Of a DNA stretch of 64,000 nt, positions 11,911 to 46,629 are shown piece by piece. The first letter of the stretch is position 1. Each line of letters begins with the position of its first letter. The position numbers and the translations under genes are program-made. The stretch is taken from the NCBI GenBank assembly GCA_947561395.2, contig OX387185.1, forward strand, positions 46,944,602 through 47,008,601, in the 5' to 3' direction. Origin of the DNA: Buxus sempervirens (lineage: Eukaryota; Streptophyta; Magnoliopsida; Buxales; Buxaceae). Below the pieces are notes generated by a model. It ran no database searches, was not told where the DNA came from, and saw nothing but the letters and a program-made list of their open reading frames with translations.

Positions 11911-13067
11911 CTAGTAAAAGGGCACGTGCGTTGTTGCATGTGGAGCCACTTCAATATATTTTGGAGTTATAAAAAGTGACCGCCGTACCTCTTCAAAACT
12001 TGATATGGCAATGTGCCTAATTTTTCTGTTAGTATCTATCATTGTTCAACATGAATGCTTCTCACATTCTCCATCTCTATCTATTATCGTTTGATTCCTT
12101 CTACAAGCCTAACATCTTTTGTTGTTCGATTCCAAAATCCTAACATCTCTTGTTGATTGATTTAGGATCCAAACCCCTAACATATCTTGCCGATTAATGC
12201 TTCTTCTCACAATTTTCTTCTTTGTTATAGATTCAATTCCTTTTAAGAGACGTTTTGTGCATGATCAAAAGACTGTACATCCCTAGCTTTGAAAAATAAT
12301 GTTAAAATACGAGAATATTGTTTTGTTCTAAGAGACGTTTTGTTGCCTATTAACGCTTTGTTCGAAGAATCATGTATGAAACCTGTTCAAATATATTTTA
12401 TTAGTTTCTTTTATTTTTGGATCACCAATAGGTTAAAAGCACAAGCCTTATGCATCCAATATAAAAGCAATATCACGATTACTTTTTCAACTAATAGGAC
12501 ACATGGTGACTTGGAAAAAAAACCCAGAATTGTAAAATAATTATAATTATTGTTAGAAGCACATTTTACGTATCTATTTTTTAATTATCGTTAATTGGAG
12601 AAAAATAGGATTTTAATAGATTCACTTAAATAGTTATAAAAAAATATAACCTTGAAATTAGATATCTTAAAACTATTAGTAAATGTACAAAACCTAATAG
12701 ATAAGTATAAGTATCAGGGAAAAAGTTTGATTTAATATGATAATAATTAAAACCTAGATATTTGAAAACTATTTGTGAATATTAAATTTTGAATTCAAGT
12801 TTTGTAAATATTTGAAAACTATTTGTAAATATTAAATATTAAATATTGAAGTCACGTTTTGTGGATTCCTACGTTTTGCTAATTGTTGGAGAATAGTTGT
12901 AATGTGGTAGGATTTTATTAGAGAAAGACTCTACACGACAATAATAATGAAGTTTAGACGTTTAATTGATGTTCAATATGTGGAATTAAAGATTTAGGGA
13001 AGGACATTTTAGGTATGTGAAAATTGAAAACACTTAAGGTAGTTCGTGCTTTTAATAGTAGTATAAA
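11911..13067 (-). mobile_element. Non-autonomous Helitron candidate (minus strand)
   Basis: Read on the minus strand, the 3' end is CTAG (11914-11911) followed by T. It is preceded by a GC-rich hairpin (CACATGC, loop, GCACGTG) about 10 nt upstream, which is the Helitron 3' architecture. The 5' end shares TACTACTAT and the block AAAGCACGAACT with the next Helitron, although its terminal TC appears mutated to TT. The interior is AT-rich and shows no RepHel protein. Confidence 0.55.
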
Positions 13068-13289
13068 TTCATATAGATTCTTAAATGTATATTCTCCGTA
13101 AAAGGTGGCTGCAATAGTGTTTTAATATTTTTTATGACTAGTAGTAAACATGCACGTGAGAGGTTTTTTTAATAAATAAATAAATATAGAAGCAACAGAT
13201 GTAATGGTTATCTAAATAGATGTTAAGGAATAATAAGACATTCAAAACATCTGATTATCCAACTAAGAAGCACGGTTGACTTTATTTGT

Positions 13290-13760
13290 TTTCCTCAACA
13301 GAGGCTTTATTCATCTTATCAATAGATGTTAAGGAATTCGTATCTTACTGAAATATAAGTTTTTGAAATATTAGACGTTATTGAAAATAACTTTGAATTA
13401 TATTAGTGATTATTGCGATAAAAATATTGATTTTTGGCTTTTTTTCTATTTTTATTTTATAGTTTTGGCGTATATATAAATAATTTATAGTATTTTTCTT
13501 CACTAAAATATCTTTTTAAGAATTTATATGTTTTAATGTCATGGTTACTTGTAATACTTTTAAAGGATGTTATTGAAATTTAACTATTTATAAGCTTTAT
13601 TAATCTTTATCAATAGAGATGTAATAGTTGGCTTTATTCATCTTATCAATAGATCTTAAGGAATTCGAGTCTTATCCAAATATATGTTTTTTGAATTGAT
13701 AGACTTTATTAAAAATAACTTTAAATTATATTAGTGAATAAAAATATTATCTTTTGATTT
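13290..13760. repeat. Diverged local direct repeat
   Basis: A block beginning ttaaggaattcg (about 13330) and running through gaaaataactttgaattatat recurs about 340 bp later (from about 13667), clearly diverged. It is a degenerate internal duplication in the AT-rich part of the Helitron. Confidence 0.5.
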
Positions 13761-13936
13761 TTTTTTTGGTGGATAAAAATAATATCCTTTAACAGATATT
13801 ATTGAAATTTTATTAATTATAATGTTGTTTGAATTGACGTTATATCTTTAAAGGTTAAAAAGTATCCTATCACCAATTAATTAATATCAATACTTATACT
13901 AATATAAATATCTAAAATTTAGGATTTATCTATTTT

Positions 13937-14278
13937 TATTGATACCATAAAATTAAATTCTTTATCTATATATAGTTAGATCCTAATTTAATATTATCAC
14001 ATCAATATTGAAAAAAGAGTAGAAGCAATAAGAGAAAGATGAATTAAATACATGAGATAACAACAACACGCTAACACCTTTTAAAACACTAATCGTCCAA
14101 CACATATCATTTATTGATACCATGAAATTAAATTCTTTATCTATAGTTATATTCTAATTTAATATTATCACATAAATATTAAAAAAGAGTAAAAATAATA
14201 AGATAAAGATGAATTAAATACATGAGATGACAATAACATGCTAACACCTTTTAAAACACTAATCGTCAAACACATATG
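13937..14278. repeat. Tandem duplication, unit about 174 bp
   Basis: The unit starting ttattgataccat runs to cgtccaacacatat and is repeated immediately (second copy from 14111) with only scattered substitutions and a short indel. It is non-coding and AT-rich. Confidence 0.8.
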
Positions 14279-20601: not shown

Positions 20602-21834
20602 CTCACAATTAACATAATATTGCCAATTAGTGTATTGGCTTCTTATTAGGCTTATAGTGACAGAAATATCCAAAATCATACAAGTTCATTAATAAGAAAA
20701 TTCTAAAAATATGATTTGCTTACTGGTTGTCTCTCTTCTTTCTCAACAGTTTTAATTAGTGAGTGTGTGGGAGAGAGAGAGATATTTGGAAGATAACATG
20801 CATCAAAGAAGAAGATCATGCAATGGATCTGGTCTTCGATCTTGCATCAAATAAAAGACGAATTGGGACCGCTATAGCTATAGGCTATAGCTAGTTTCAA
20901 GGGTTGGCAACTCTCATGCTCAAAATATAGTACCCCAAGAGAATAAAAAGATAGCTAGAAAGAGAAGCGAGAGGAAGGAATTAAGCAGCTAATAAACTGA
21001 TTACACGTGTTGATGCAATCCCAATCAAATTTTCGGTGGAGATGATGAAGACATTGATGGGGTATTGATTGCTTGATTGTGCTTTGATCTCTATTGAACT
21101 TTAGCTCCTTTCATTAAAAAAGTGGAAGAAAAGAATTGACACGTGTGACCATGAATTTAGGGCGTGTGTAATGGACCATACCATAACATAGCCATGATGT
21201 TGTCCGGTTATACCAAAAATGGAAAGATTATCTACTAAGGATTGCCATAAATGGTATGTGCGTGCATGGTGAGGATGGAGTTCGTGTCACATTAATAGCA
21301 AACATCATATTCCACATCCTTTCTTTGTGAGGAAAGGAGGAATGACGCTAATTGCACTACATTCTCCATGTTCCGTCTACGTCGACGCTTGGAAAGTCAT
21401 GTGAAAAAACAAGGGTCTTACATAAAAGAAGGAATTAAGGATGAGATTGAAACCAAATAAGGAATTGAGAAAGTTTTATTTCCTTCTTTTTTTTCTTTGA
21501 TATAATTTTTTGGTTGAAGTAAAATCTTTGCAATGTTAGGTGTGTGATGTCTCTTGTCACACCAATCAAATGGCGCCATGCATAGTGGGACATATGCATG
21601 TAATTGTTTCTTGGTAGACAAAGAACCCGCACAATGGCAAGCAAGTGTTTAGAACTCAACCATTTGTGTATATCTCCCAGTAGCACATGATTGGACTCAA
21701 AAAATTTGTAAGCTAGCTAAGATAAAAAGCAATATAAACCCTTTTTTTTTTTTAACTTATATATTAAAATTACTAGTTCACATCACTTATGATGCTTGCT
21801 ATGGCACCGATCATGTGAGGATTCTTAGCCATTG
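20602..21834. other. Intergenic stretch, nothing recognised
   Basis: AT-rich sequence between the foldback element and the CACTA element. It holds a short GA run near 20775, a T run near 21741 and scattered short frames with no family resemblance. I see no gene here. Confidence 0.6.
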
Positions 21835-23207
21835 CACTACAAAAATGAAGAGAATTAGCGGCACCTTTTAGCGGCGGTAACCTAATTCCCGCCTCTAAAG
21901 GCACTATTACCGGCGGTAAAAGCACTTTCCGCCCCTAAAAATTCTTTCACCATTTTTTTCGCGCGGAAATTTTATGGCGCGCATTTTTTTAGCGCGAAAT
22001 AGCCTTTAGCGGCGGTAAGTACCGCCGCTATAGTACATTTTACCGGCGGAAACATATCTACCGCCGGTAACAAGTTGGCGGGAAGGTCCTGCCAATAAAA
22101 GTGTTATTACCGGCGGACTGCTACCGCCGGTAATAACACTTTTAGAGGCGGTAAGCTCATTACCGCCCCGAAAAGCCATATATTAGAGGCGGTATATGCC
22201 TTGCCGCCGTTAAAAGACCCTTTAGGGGCGGTAAGCCAATTACCGCCCCTAAAAGCGGGTTTTTCAGAGGCGGTATTGTCTTTACCGCCTCAGAAGAGAC
22301 GTTTTAGCGGCGGTAATATCCTTACCGCCGCTAAAAGTCCATTTTACGGGCTCTGAATCGCTTACCGTCGTAAAGAAATTTGTTGTGGGTGAAATAGTGT
22401 GCAAGTTTTACCGGCGGTTTTGAGAACCGCCGGTAAAACCCTGTTTTCACGTCCTTTACCGGCGGCTTAACCGCCGGTAAAGGACTTTTTTCATTTTTAA
22501 AAAAAAGCTCGATTGTTACTGTGTTGGACCTTTAGAGGCGGTATCTACAGCCGCTAAAACTCAATTTTTAGAGGCGGTAAACCAATTACTGCCCCTAAAA
22601 ATGTGTTTTCAGAGGCGGTACTGTCCTTACCGCCCCAGAAGAGATGTTTTAGCGGCGGTAATCTCTTTACCGCCCTTAAAAGTCCCTTTTAGCCCCTAAA
22701 AGGGACTTTTACCGCCCTTAAAAGTCCCTTTTAGGGGCTCTCTCTGGCTAAACCGCCGGTAAAGGATTTTTTTCATTTTTTTTAAAAAACTCGACTGCTA
22801 TTGTGTTGGACCTTTAGAGGCGGTATCTAGCGCCGCGAAAACTACATTTTTAGGGGCGGTAAGTTATGTACCGCCCCTAAAAGCCGGTTTTCAGAGGCGG
22901 TAATATCTTTACCGCCCCAAAAAAATGTAGTTTTAGCGGCGGTAAACGTATTACCGCCGCTAAAAGACATTTATTAAAAAACCATAAATTACTTTTAGCG
23001 GCAGTAAGCAAGGTACCGCCGCTAAAAGACCATTTCTAATTATACAAGCGGGACTTTTCCCCGCGTTTCAATTTTGAATGTACATTTAGGGGCGGTTATT
23101 ATCGCCGCTAAAAGTTTAAGCGCGATTTTCAAATTCAATTCAACTCGTGGGCGCGGAAATGTAAGGTTTAGCGGCGGTAATCTATGTGCCGCCGCTAAAA
23201 CTCCACT

Positions 23208-23222
23208 CTATAAAAACCCGCC
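23208..23222 (+). promoter_or_regulatory. Possible relic promoter inside the CACTA element
   Basis: CTCTATAAAAACCCG is a good TATA-box context, followed by about 50 bp of leader-like sequence and then the TC tract. In an autonomous relative this could be the transposase or passenger promoter. That is inference; no gene follows it here. Confidence 0.3.
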
Positions 23223-23268
23223 GAATCTCTTCTTTTCTTCAAGGTATGTTTTCTTTCTCTTCAACTTT

Positions 23269-23276
23269 TCTCTCTA

Positions 23277-23338
<62 letters not shown>

Positions 23339-23433
23339 TCTATCTCTCTTTCTCTCCCTCTCCATCTCTCTCTCTCTCTCTTTCTTTCCCTCTCTACTTC
23401 TCTCTCTCTCTCTCTTTCTCTCCCTCTCTACTT

Positions 23434-23507
<74 letters not shown>

Positions 23508-23560
23508 CCTCTCCATCTCTCTCTCTCTTTCTCTCCTTCTCTATCTCTCTCTCCCCTCTC
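23269..23560 (+). repeat. Long (TC)n microsatellite
   Basis: About 290 bp of nearly pure CT dinucleotides with a few ccat, ctac and ttct interruptions that themselves recur, showing internal slippage or duplication. It lies within the CACTA element. Ser/Leu frames over it are artefacts. Confidence 0.97.
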
Positions 23561-24167
23561 GGTTATGCTGCTGAAGGAAAGCAGCAAATTTTTTTTATTT
23601 TTTAATATGATTTTTAGCGGCGGTATTTCCCGCCGCTAAAAACATGATCTCATTTTTTTTATTTTTTAAAATGAGTTTTAGCGGCGGGAAATACCGCCGC
23701 TAAAAGCCGGAAATACCGCCGGTAATGAGTGATAACAATAGCGGCGGTAATCGACCGCCGGTAATGAATGGGCAATAGCGGCGGGAACGTACCGCCGGTA
23801 ATGAGTGATACCAATAGAGGCGGTAATCTACCGCCGGTAATGAATGGGCAATAGCGGCGGGAACGTTACCGCCGCTAATGAGTGAGCAATAGCGGCGGTA
23901 AGTTTTTTACCGCCGCTAAAAGCTTTAGTGACGGCATCTTTTACGGCAAGACTAGTTACCGCCGGAAATGTTTTTAGCGGCGGTAATTGTTGTTTTAGCG
24001 GCGGTATCTTACCGCCGCTAAAAGTGTCCTTTTTTGTAGTGTTGTGAAAATAAGTTATTGGTTAGTGTCTGTCCGATTCCAAAGGTTTGAATGTTTCTGT
24101 TCTCTATGGTTTGTATTCATCCAATATAGGTTTTTTGGATAGGAGTACCTTTGTAATGGGGGCATCA

Positions 24168-26291: not shown

Positions 26292-27630
26292 TCAGTAGCT
26301 CCAAAGACAGCCAAGGTCAACTGGTCCAGCTGAAGTGGATGGGTCCACTTGATCCTCGAAAGACCTCTGACCCAATTCATGATTCGACACAACCGAAGAT
26401 ATTTCGGTGTTCATTTCAGTAGTTAGGCCTGTCTCCTGTGAGATGCTAATCATCTCTCTTTCTGCTTTGCAATTCTGCTTGATGCCTGATCCATGGTTTT
26501 CAAATAAAGCCCTCAAGATGGCATCATCTTGCATCAAGAAAGAACCCGGGCATTGCCAATTGCTTATGTTTGAAGAACCCTGAGGGGTGTAGAGTGAGTT
26601 TGGAAGAGACATTTTGGAGAAAATCATTGACGCAGGGGAGATTTCACAAGGGTTTGAAGAACCAGACTTGAAAAGAGGAGAATTGAAGGAACCAACCATC
26701 TCTTCCTGGATTTTCTCACTCTCTGTTGGGTTGGAGAAGCAGGTCACGTGAGCAGTCTCAGAGGCGTCAGGTTTTGTTCTGCCACTGTAGGGAGAAGAGT
26801 CCATTAATGGTGGCAAAAGAGAGGGCCCCAGTTCGTCTCCAAATGAGCTCAATCTCATCAGGCCTGGAAGAGGGATTTTCTTTCCGCAAGAACTCTTCTG
26901 AAAGATCCTGCAAATCACCCACTCGTTCTGTAAAAGAACGAAAAGAAAGCAAAAGAAAATCCCATCAACACCCCTTAAAACAAAAGACCATAAAACGAAA
27001 CAGAGGACCGGAGTACAAAAAACAGAGGAAGAACTCTACCTTAGCTGTTTTCGGCAGATTATGGAGGGAGTATCTTCCCTCTAGTCTATATTCATGCATG
27101 ACCCAGTTGGTCTTCTCTCCTCTTGGAGCTCTTCCTCTGTAGAAAACCAGAGTTTTCTTCATACCCACAAGAGCTTTTCCTCTGAAAATCTCTTTATCCT
27201 TCCCCGTGGCTTTCCAGTATCCAGCTTCGGTAGCCCTGTTAGTCCTCAAACCAGTTGGGTATTTTCTGTCTCTCACACAAAAGAAATACCACTCCTTCTC
27301 TCCCATTTTAGCTTTCCCTTCATTCACAAAAACAAAACACAAAGGTCAAATTAAGAGAATTTTTGAATTGATGAAATTAAAGCTATCATGAACCATAGCT
27401 TGTTCGCAGAACACGAACCATAGCTTGTTCGCAGAACACTTACTTGGCAAATCCCAGGGCTCACACTTGTTCAAATCCACATCTCCAATTGCTCTACAGT
27501 AGAAGCTGGAATCGAAAACCTTCTTGGATAGGTAGTGGCTTATAAGCTCTTCATCGGTTGGGTGGAAGCGAAACCCCGGAGGCAAATCCATCTTCTCGTT
27601 TCCTGTACTAAACCCAGACATGTTTTCCAT
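26292..27630 (-). CDS. NAC-domain transcription factor, miR164-targeted (NAC100/ORE1/CUC clade)
   Basis: Exons 27630-27444, 27317-27040 and 26927-26292 encode 366 residues. The NAC domain covers residues 16 to about 170: [19 protein letters not shown], then [63 protein letters not shown] and [11 protein letters not shown]. The last exon carries AHVTCFSNP, the peptide over the miR164 site typical of CUC1/2, NAC1, ORE1 and NAC100, so its mRNA should be cleaved by miR164. Roles in this clade are organ boundary formation, senescence and cell expansion; the exact member is unclear, though KKVFDSSF and length favour NAC100/NAC79. The C-terminus ends in LGCLWSY, a conserved Trp-containing activation motif of the clade. 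At the first join the usual Gly or Trp is Arg ([12 protein letters not shown]). Confidence 0.93.
26732..26752 (-). promoter_or_regulatory. miR164 target site in the NAC mRNA
   Basis: The plus strand here reads TGGAGAAGCAGGTCACGTGAG, nearly identical to miR164 (differences at its position 13 and the last two bases), so the mRNA, made from the minus strand, is complementary to the microRNA. The paired seed and positions 10-11 are intact. It encodes AHVTCFSN in the last exon, the usual place in this clade. Confidence 0.9.
27390..27439. repeat. 25-bp perfect tandem duplication at the NAC intron 1 donor
   Basis: gaaccatagcttgttcgcag plus aacac occurs twice without a mismatch, in the first intron only a few bases beyond the donor at 27443. 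The exon and the GTAAGT donor are intact. It is a recent slippage-type duplication. Confidence 0.95.
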
Positions 27631-38580: not shown

Positions 38581-38799
38581 CTCCACGATTATGTGCATTG
38601 GTGCAGGGATGTGCAGGGCTCTTTGCTGTAGGTCATACAACCCATCTATATTCGGTCATATAAAAGAAGATAACGATTGCCACATGGCAAAACTGGGAAG
38701 ATCATATCTCCCCTGTTCGAGCTAACCTTTACAGAGCACAGCCACAGGTTGTGCAAGTTTTTTCCTTACCTCTGGAAATTGAAATCAAATCAAACAGCA

Positions 38800-39746
38800 A
38801 TGGGAATCTTGGCTAAGCCCACGATTCTATGCCACCCCCACGTGTACACAACCAACAAGCAGCAGCAGCACCACCACCACCAGTGTCTGCCGGTGGCCCG
38901 AGCATCTTCCGGCGACGAACCAATTCCAACCAACAGGAGAAAAGTGCTGTCGACAGTGTTAGCGGCTTCTGTGATGTTGGGATTACAAGCAACAACCCCT
39001 CTTGCGTTAGCAGAGAACTGGGGTACTCGATCGTTCCTCAAGGAACGGTTCTTCGAGCCCGGTCTCTCCCCGGAAGACGCCGTCGCGAGAATCCGACAGA
39101 CTGCGCAAGGCCTCCATAGCATGAGAGACATGTTGGAAACGATGTCATGGAGGTATGTCATCTTCTACATTCGACTCAAGTCGGCCTACCTTTCCCAAGA
39201 TTTAAAAAATGCGTTCTCTCTCTTGCCGGAAAGTCGCCGGAAGTCTTACATCAAAACGGCCAACGAACTGGTAGATAACATGGCCGAGGTATGCTATCCA
39301 TCCACTCCATTATCTAATCTCATATCATGGCCCTGATAAAGCATTGGGAGCCTTTGACACAAAAATTAAATCAAAAGTACCTGTACCACTCAGGTCTCAG
39401 ACCTGCGACCTTAATGAGATAATAGACTGAACAATAACAATATTTATGACAAAAGTGAATACTTTAAACAACAAATCCCAGTTACCTAAAGCAAACATTT
39501 AATGGCTTTGAATTGTTTCATGAACATGGTATCTAAGTTCCCTTGTATATTGCCATGTAGAAAACAAAGAGGATAACTTGATTTGTATTGTTTGAAAAAA
39601 AAATGTCAGATCTCACTCTAAATGATTCTTGTGTCTCTGTATTTCAGTTTGATTATTATGTCCGAACACCGAAAGTATACGAGTCGTATCTGTTCTATGA
39701 GAAGACATTAAAATCACTAGATGAGATTGTAGCCTTACTGGCTTAG
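38800..39746 (+). CDS. PNSL2: Photosynthetic NDH subunit of lumenal location 2 (PsbQ-like)
   Basis: Exons 38800-39288 and 39648-39746 encode 195 residues. PsbQ-like four-helix protein of the lumenal subcomplex of chloroplast NDH, which supports cyclic electron flow around photosystem I. Residues 1 to about 45 are a Ser/Arg/His-rich chloroplast transit peptide. A twin-arginine (NRRKV) followed by a hydrophobic stretch (LSTVLAASVMLGL) and ALA forms a Tat-type thylakoid signal. The mature part has WGTRSFLKERFFEPGLSPEDA, then MSWRYVIFYIRLKSAYLSQDL, LPESRRKSY and FDYYVRTPKVYESYLFYEKTLKSLD, diagnostic for PnsL2 rather than PsbQ or PnsL3. ATG 38800 was chosen because it opens the transit peptide, although an upstream in-frame ATG exists at about 38683. 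Normal length, no lesions. Confidence 0.92.
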
Positions 39747-46124: not shown

Positions 46125-46190
46125 ATTCCAATTTTCACCTAGTAAATGATACAGCCTATTCCAATTTTCACCTAGTAAATGATACAGCCT
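46125..46190. repeat. 33-bp perfect tandem duplication
   Basis: attccaattttcacctagta plus aatgatacagcct occurs twice without a mismatch, directly beyond hairpin MITE copy b. Confidence 0.95.
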
Positions 46191-46629
46191 ACTACCCTAG
46201 TCATTGAAGCATATGGCACGCAATAAAAAGACAAGGAATTCCGTCAACGCACTACATGAAATATTCTAGAGATGCGTGTGTCGGTGCGTTACTGCCTTTC
46301 AAGGAAGCAGAACCGTTCAAGGAGAGGGGCGAAGAAAGATGAGATTCCTCTGCCTCGGTCGACACAAAGTAGACTTGCAAGTATCAATGGGCCATCGCCA
46401 AGACCCTCAGATTCCACTTTCCAATACCGTGGGCTGTTGGTTCCGCACACGCTTTATCCAAAAATCCAATTCAAAGTAGGAGAAGATGAGAGTGAGAGAA
46501 GACACCATAAATGGTCTCACGTGACGGAGCTTTGCTAAACTGCCAGAAGCTCCACTCCAATCATTTTCATGGAAAGACCAAGACACTTCACCATTCAGCC
46601 CCTCCTTCCCGAGGCCATATCAGCTGATC

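What the first reader, a model, noticed from the sequence alone, without database searches (positions are those of the whole stretch)
21835..24041. CACTA element built of dozens of hairpins whose two arms vary together
Seen directly: the same motif exists in four flavours (AGCGGCGGTAA, AGGGGCGGTAA, AGAGGCGGTAA, ACCGGCGGTAA), and in many hairpins both arms carry the matching flavour, e.g. CCGG stems at 22097-22143, 22405-22439 and 22451-22485, GGGG at about 22222-22256, GCGG at about 22304-22340. Usual CACTA subterminal repeats lie only near the ends and need no pairing. Arm-with-arm agreement suggests whole hairpins are the unit that is copied, or that arms correct each other, and each hairpin could be a transposase docking unit or a source of small RNA.
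Basis: partly seen in the sequence, partly recalled or inferred. Interest (0 to 1): 0.72.

Follow-up and report, generated by a model that had tools for sequence, protein, structure and literature searches.

The report
CACTA transposon with flipping DNA hairpins
This is an ordinary small plant jumping gene whose many hairpin-shaped sequence motifs look like protein docking sites, but comparing copies across the genome shows that the loops of its best-paired hairpins have repeatedly been turned around, which makes the family a natural test bed for how DNA hairpins mutate.

Summary
Window 21835-24041 is a complete non-autonomous CACTA element: 11-bp terminal repeats, TTG target duplication, 64 GGCGG/CCGCC arms, 52 of them in 26 hairpins. 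Arm flavours match within hairpins more than chance: 15 of 26 against 6.3 expected, 8 of 13 against 3.4 after collapsing look-alikes. The other 11 are mismatched. Of 50 copies examined, 48 are full-length with 3-bp duplications.

Hairpin-bearing blocks are duplicated. General arm-with-arm correction is not supported: 15 restoring changes against 13.2 expected.

Flips favour well-paired stems. The window copy also carries a new perfect hairpin from a forward-inverted-forward insertion. Both fit template switching. GGCGG cores are conserved among spreading lineages (4 common to 70 singleton variants; linkers 88 to 199), as expected of binding sites. Stem-loop subterminal arrays are known from soybean Tgm elements; recurrent loop flipping in a nuclear transposon family did not turn up in eight paper searches.

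The parts
21832..21834 (.). left target-site duplication TTG
21835..24041 (+). complete non-autonomous CACTA element (orientation arbitrary)
   Evidence: full-length relatives
21835..21845 (+). left terminal inverted repeat CACTACAAAAA
21866..23204 (.). 5' hairpin array (18 of the 26 hairpins)
22003..22032 (.). hairpin whose loop (only 2 nt asymmetric) is in the minority orientation, as in 13 of 42 labelled copies
22091..22149 (.). long hairpin; loop ACTGCTA is the exact reverse complement of TAGCAGT carried by most copies (flip shared with L012 and L030)
22221..22254 (.). hairpin matched GGGG/CCCC here, where the family majority is mismatched AGC/AGG
22302..22336 (.). hairpin matched GCGG/CCGC here, where the family majority is mismatched AGC/AGG
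22261..22922 (.). repeated multi-hairpin block (copies 22261-22346 and 22606-22691; 22464-22640 and 22746-22922)
22691..22739 (.). perfect 21-bp-stem hairpin from a forward-inverted-forward insertion, inverted piece found in 1 of 46 copies, next to a deletion
   Evidence: (I18)
23269..23553 (+). TC microsatellite between the two arrays
23612..24023 (.). 3' hairpin array (8 of the 26 hairpins), with a 76-bp tandem repeat at 23714-23865
24031..24041 (-). right terminal inverted repeat TTTTTGTAGTG
24042..24044 (.). right target-site duplication TTG

Best explanation
A non-autonomous CACTA element, moved in trans by a CACTA transposase (inferred), whose subterminal arrays are inverted pairs of a GGCGGTAA-type motif. 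The pairs most likely serve as symmetric sites for a dimeric TNPA-like binding protein (inferred). Shown: the core motif is conserved among lineages that spread, while loops and linkers drift; hairpin-bearing blocks are duplicated in tandem; loops of well-paired hairpins are inverted repeatedly. Inferred: a hairpin is born with two identical arms in one event (template switching or block duplication), afterwards its arms decay by point mutation, and while the arms are still well matched the polymerase (or a cruciform intermediate) sometimes copies the loop from the other strand, inverting it. So arms agree because of birth and youth, not because they are constantly corrected.
For: 48 of 50 copies examined are full-length, all 48 with 3-bp duplications. 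Exact reverse-complement loop haplotypes differing by 3-7 nt occur in 7 of 27 asymmetric hairpins; by mere reversal or mere complement in 0 of 32; exact ones across linkers in 0 of 29; minimum changes on a tree built without those loops 3+1+5+2+3+2+1 = 17. Flipped: 6 of 12 hairpins with at least 8 bp perfect stem against 1 of 15 others, Fisher one-sided p 0.016. At one hairpin the flip occurs in WIN, L012 and L030, and L030 sits in another clade with another left flank; a sister-subfamily member (L090) has a loop nearer the majority orientation there (by eye). A new 21-bp perfect hairpin made by a forward-inverted-forward insertion, in 1 of 46 copies. Common versus singleton variants: core 4 to 70, linker 88 to 199, p 2e-6; loop 47 to 78.
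Against: No autonomous partner or binding protein was identified, so the docking function is inferred. The selection test takes cores from the majority sequence, so decayed arms count as linker, which biases it somewhat towards conservation of cores. Flip counts from the tree are inflated if copies recombine; one per hairpin (7) is the floor. L030's right flank (AACAC) agrees with WIN and L012 rather than with its sister copies (AACCC), so a short conversion tract cannot be excluded there. In 3 of 29 linkers four copies were nearer to the inverted than to the majority sequence, none exactly (not followed up). Matched stems without observed flips exist (6 of 12). The 8-bp threshold was set after seeing the data. 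Template switching and cruciform cutting/rejoining predict nearly the same loop inversions.
Confidence: 0.7

Rival explanations
1. Arms continuously correct each other (gene-conversion-like quasipalindrome correction), which keeps flavours matched.
For: The window copy is matched at two hairpins where the family majority is C.C mismatched, by changes in opposite arms; the one at 22221-22254 did not enter the tally. Restoring C-to-G changes are seen also in L032 and L085, although C-to-G is the rarest change in linkers (8 of 218). One clade carries a three-base difference that extends the 278 stem, direction unknown.
Against: Overall restoring changes 15 against 13.2 expected, p 0.32; 162 rare changes broke matched pairs, with only 2 compensated pairs (one listed from both sides). 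Half of the hairpins of the family majority (16 of 32) are mismatched.
Confidence: 0.15
2. Pairing itself is selected: the hairpins must form as DNA or RNA (folded docking unit or small-RNA source).
For: Very stable folds (z -13.5 for the 3' part as RNA). Flavour positions show a mild deficit of common variants (10 to 48, p 0.039) and outer arm letters too (1 to 16, p 0.028).
Against: 16 of 32 hairpins of the family majority have mismatched flavours, and flavour positions are less constrained than cores, so the motif seems to matter more than pairing. No small-RNA data here.
Confidence: 0.15
3. Loop inversions come from cutting and rejoining of extruded cruciforms, or from transposase action, rather than from polymerase template switching.
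For: Needs well-matched arms and inverts the loop in place, as observed.
Against: Does not explain the forward-inverted-forward insertion. At the one mismatched-stem flip (L027) the outer A.A mismatch was left in place, so the whole hairpin was not turned.
Confidence: 0.25
4. Inverted loops are assembly or polishing errors.
For: Hairpins are difficult for some sequencing chemistries (general knowledge; no call).
Against: Minority orientations are shared by many copies at two hairpins (15 of 41 and 8 of 18 labelled copies), and the 15 lie almost all in one clade.
Confidence: 0.04

Closest known systems
Soybean Tgmt* / Tgm1 / TgmR* CACTA elements (PMC2613891 and PMC4219821, passages read)
   Same: CACTA ends, 3-bp duplication, asymmetric subterminal arrays of a GC-rich plus AT-rich motif in inverted pairs that can form stem-loops (12 in one border and 2 in the other in Tgmt*).
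   Different: Another motif (TTGGCAG/AATCTTACAG in Tgmt*); Tgmt* (20.5 kb) and TgmR* (13 kb) are coding, this one is 2.2 kb without a long frame and has 26 hairpins over most of its length; loop inversions are not mentioned in the passages I read.
En/Spm of maize with TNPA (passages of PMC2613891; shorter arrays recalled)
   Same: Subterminal repeats recognised by an element-encoded DNA-binding protein and required in cis.
   Different: 12-bp motif; shorter arrays (recalled); binding not shown here.
Template-switch mutations in RNA hairpins (PMC8794818; abstract, first of two parts of Results, and Discussion read)
   Same: Loop inversion in place, creation of perfect stems by a single event.
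   Different: There loop inversions were rare (69 loop-only cases among clusters holding 289,024 rRNA sequences); here several in one transposon family. Their enrichment of multiple corrections has no counterpart in my single-site test.
Small inversions at hairpins in plastid genomes (as cited in PMC3123225, passages read; search listing)
   Same: Recurrent, homoplastic inversion of loops between inverted repeats, linked there to hairpin stability.
   Different: Plastid DNA; here nuclear transposon copies. The bird microinversions that PMC3123225 itself reports were not associated with stem-loops.

Membership tests
CACTA (En/Spm) superfamily | Terminal inverted repeats beginning CACTA | tested here: met
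   11-bp perfect inverted termini CACTACAAAAA
CACTA (En/Spm) superfamily | 3-bp target-site duplication | tested here: met
   TTG in the window; 48 of 48 full-length copies, of 50 examined
CACTA (En/Spm) superfamily | Subterminal repeats of 10-20 bp in direct and inverted orientation | tested here: met
   64 arms, 26 hairpins
CACTA (En/Spm) superfamily | Mobilised by a CACTA transposase (Transposase_21) | tested here: inconclusive
   150 scored PF02992 matches of 520 candidates; compared by eye with the 100 of 334 listed 5' ends, none could be placed inside an element with these ends
Tgm-like stem-loop CACTA | Tgm subterminal motif | tested here: not met
   Motif here is AGCGGCGGTAA-like; Tgmt* motif from PMC2613891; compared by eye
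Template-switch mutation | Exact reverse-complement replacement between inverted repeats | tested here: met
   7 of 27 hairpins, exact controls 0
Template-switch mutation | Fold-back insertion making a new perfect hairpin | tested here: met
   One case, window copy only
Template-switch mutation | Excess of changes that restore pairing | tested here: not met
   15 against 13.2 expected

The most novel reading that the evidence does not exclude
The docking array of a CACTA family renews itself: repair synthesis that follows excision switches template at the hairpins, so that each round of transposition can create, duplicate and flip binding-site pairs, and new motif flavours arise as ready-made matched pairs on which the binding protein then selects.
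Probability: 0.25. Interest if true: 0.68.

Novelty: new member of a known kind. Interest (0 to 1): 0.48.

Why it matters
A few hundred related ends in one genome (334 left, 258 right at up to 3 mismatches) point to many near-identical copies, each with about 30 hairpins of differing stem quality at known places: a replicated natural experiment on how stem length, mismatches and loop size affect in-place inversion and hairpin birth in a nuclear genome. It also gives population-style evidence that the core of CACTA subterminal repeats is under selection while full pairing of the arms is not strictly needed. The element itself is an ordinary transposon.

Tried and rejected
Continuous arm correction: tested with rare variants on 43 copies, no excess. 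The window's change at 22221-22254 is missing from that tally, probably because a neighbouring gap failed my context filter. Compensated double changes: three listed rows, two distinct pairs. Exact flips of linkers between hairpins: 0 of 29; four copies in three linkers were nearer to the inverted sequence without being exact, not followed up. Single-base T/A changes in two palindromic loops and the 2-nt hairpin at 177 were left out of the main tally because substitutions could mimic them.

Autonomous partner: a Pfam Transposase_21 search scored 150 matches of 520 candidates. I compared their places by eye with the 100 listed of 334 5' ends. One transposase about 12.6 kb from a 5' end (G000:C3:42418603) was left unresolved: its locus L063 gave no match to the family sequence, and the start read there (L090) is a sister-subfamily copy. 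A transposase-bearing relative with a similar start (L089) shows no dense array in the 1.5 kb read. The middles of two longer family members (L091, L092) showed no long transposase-like frame; frames were listed but not scanned against families. A pattern search with a wrong spacer length found 16 ends of other families and was repeated correctly. The pairing of 5' and 3' ends used typed subsets of two listings that were themselves cut at 100 rows.

Rows dropped: L044 and L047 (rearranged or partial) and, from the aligned set, L082 and L083 (long branches). L033-L035 were first missed because my search window was too short and were added. One search failed (stop codons in the frame I gave). 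The private-insertion scan listed 5 segments and missed the window's own insertion because of how the alignment placed it. Searches in print: (no paper).

Full report
What it is. Window 21835-24041 is a complete CACTA element with 11-bp inverted termini and a TTG target duplication. It lies in an unnamed 676.5-Mb genome; a PsbQ-like frame in the window fits a plant. No stop-to-stop frame of 200 aa or more overlaps it: two hairpin arrays (21866-23204 and 23612-24023) enclose a TC microsatellite.

Copies. A DNA search of the genome scored 40 of 1069 candidates. From its listing I fetched 40 regions (one is the window's own copy) and 10 more chosen from later searches. Of these 50, 48 are full-length with a perfect 3-bp duplication; L044 and L047 are not. 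Genome-wide there are 334 matches to the 5' end and 258 to the 3' end at up to 3 mismatches, control 0. Identity of the window copy to the 34 other copies first aligned is 90-96%.

Arm agreement. Of 26 hairpins, 15 carry the same three-letter flavour on both arms, 6.3 expected; outward-facing neighbours 3 of 19, 2.9 expected. After collapsing look-alikes, 8 of 13 against 3.4. The signal sits in the 5' array; the 3' array alone is not significant. In the 35 copies tested one by one, 6 to 17 hairpins match of 24 to 35; the count exceeds the shuffled mean in all 35, though 3 (L026, L041, L046) are not significant at 0.05.

How the array grows. Tandem repeats of about 40 and 76-80 bp, a block recurring at 282-345 bp and an 81-bp direct duplication listed in L029 and L046 show that hairpins are copied as wholes, singly or several together.

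Loop inversion. In the 46-copy alignment (48 minus L082 and L083), 27 of 32 majority-sequence hairpins have loops asymmetric enough (3 or more differences) to show an inversion. Seven contain copies with exactly inverted loops. Loops merely reversed or merely complemented: 0 of 32; exact inversions of linkers: 0 of 29, though four copies in three linkers were nearer to the inverted sequence. On a tree built without those loops at least 17 changes of orientation are needed (3, 1, 5, 2, 3, 2, 1), and no fewer than 7 even if recombination among copies spread each inversion. Six of 12 hairpins with a perfect stem of 8 bp or more have flipped, 1 of 15 others (p 0.016, threshold set after inspection). 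The window copy carries the minority orientation at 22112-22128, shared with L012 and L030. L030 lies in another clade and has that clade's left flank, so its flip looks independent, but its right flank (AACAC) is that of WIN and L012 and not of its sisters, so a short conversion tract is possible. A sister-subfamily copy (L090) has a loop nearer the majority orientation there (by eye).

A hairpin born in the window copy. At 22691-22739 a piece of neighbouring sequence is present forward, inverted and forward again, giving a perfect 21-bp stem; the inverted piece occurs in 1 of 46 copies, and part of the neighbouring block that the relatives shown have is missing beside it. This is the footprint expected of template switching (PMC8794818; abstract, first part of Results and Discussion read).

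Arm correction. The window copy is matched at two hairpins where the majority is not, which made correction attractive. But across 43 copies rare changes at mismatched pairs restored pairing 15 times against 13.2 expected from the linker spectrum (p 0.32), and 162 rare changes broke matched pairs (one of the two window cases was not in this tally). I therefore do not claim correction as a rule.

Selection. Singletons, presumably mostly mutations after insertion, are about as frequent in cores (5.0 per 1000 cells) as in linkers (5.5). Variants in at least 4 copies, which were most likely inherited from source copies that transposed, are rare in cores: 4 common to 70 singletons, against 88 to 199 in linkers (p 2e-6) and 47 to 78 in loops. 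Flavour positions are intermediate, 10 to 48 (p 0.039); the outer arm letters, which also have few singletons (2.1 per 1000), give 1 to 16 (p 0.028). So the GGCGG core, more than the pairing of the flavour letters, is what spreading seems to require. The usual spacing GGCGG-N11-CCGCC (14 of 26) spans 21 bp, two helical turns, which suits a dimer (inference).

Comparison. Stem-loop subterminal arrays are known in soybean Tgm elements (PMC2613891, PMC4219821; passages read). Loop inversion at hairpins is known in plastids (as cited in PMC3123225, passages read; the bird inversions of that paper were not tied to stem-loops) and, rarely, in rRNA genes (PMC8794818). Eight searches of the held library showed me no report of recurrent loop inversion in a nuclear transposon family; I read listings for most of these, and most subscription papers are not held.

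Verdict. A new member of a known kind of element. The real interest is the mutational behaviour of its hairpins.

Noticed in passing
window 38674-39333 (+): Open frame matching PsbQ (oxygen-evolving enhancer protein 3), E 1.1e-25.
   Followed up: no
L044: Rearranged family member with its first part and its last part in opposite orientations.
   Followed up: partly
L089 with L050: Another CACTA family starting CACTACAAAAAAAATATGCTTTTAGCGGC about 4.5 kb upstream of a Transposase_21 frame; no dense hairpin array in the 1.5 kb read.
   Followed up: partly
G000:C3:55728524-55735105 and G000:C4:50054282-50059321: Two longer members (6.6 and 5.0 kb by end pairing) of the family; no long transposase-like frame in the parts read.
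   Followed up: partly
window 27390-27439 and 46125-46191: Two exact two-copy tandem repeats (25 and 33 bp).
   Followed up: no
window 12001-14000: AT-rich stretch, 24.6% G+C.
   Followed up: no
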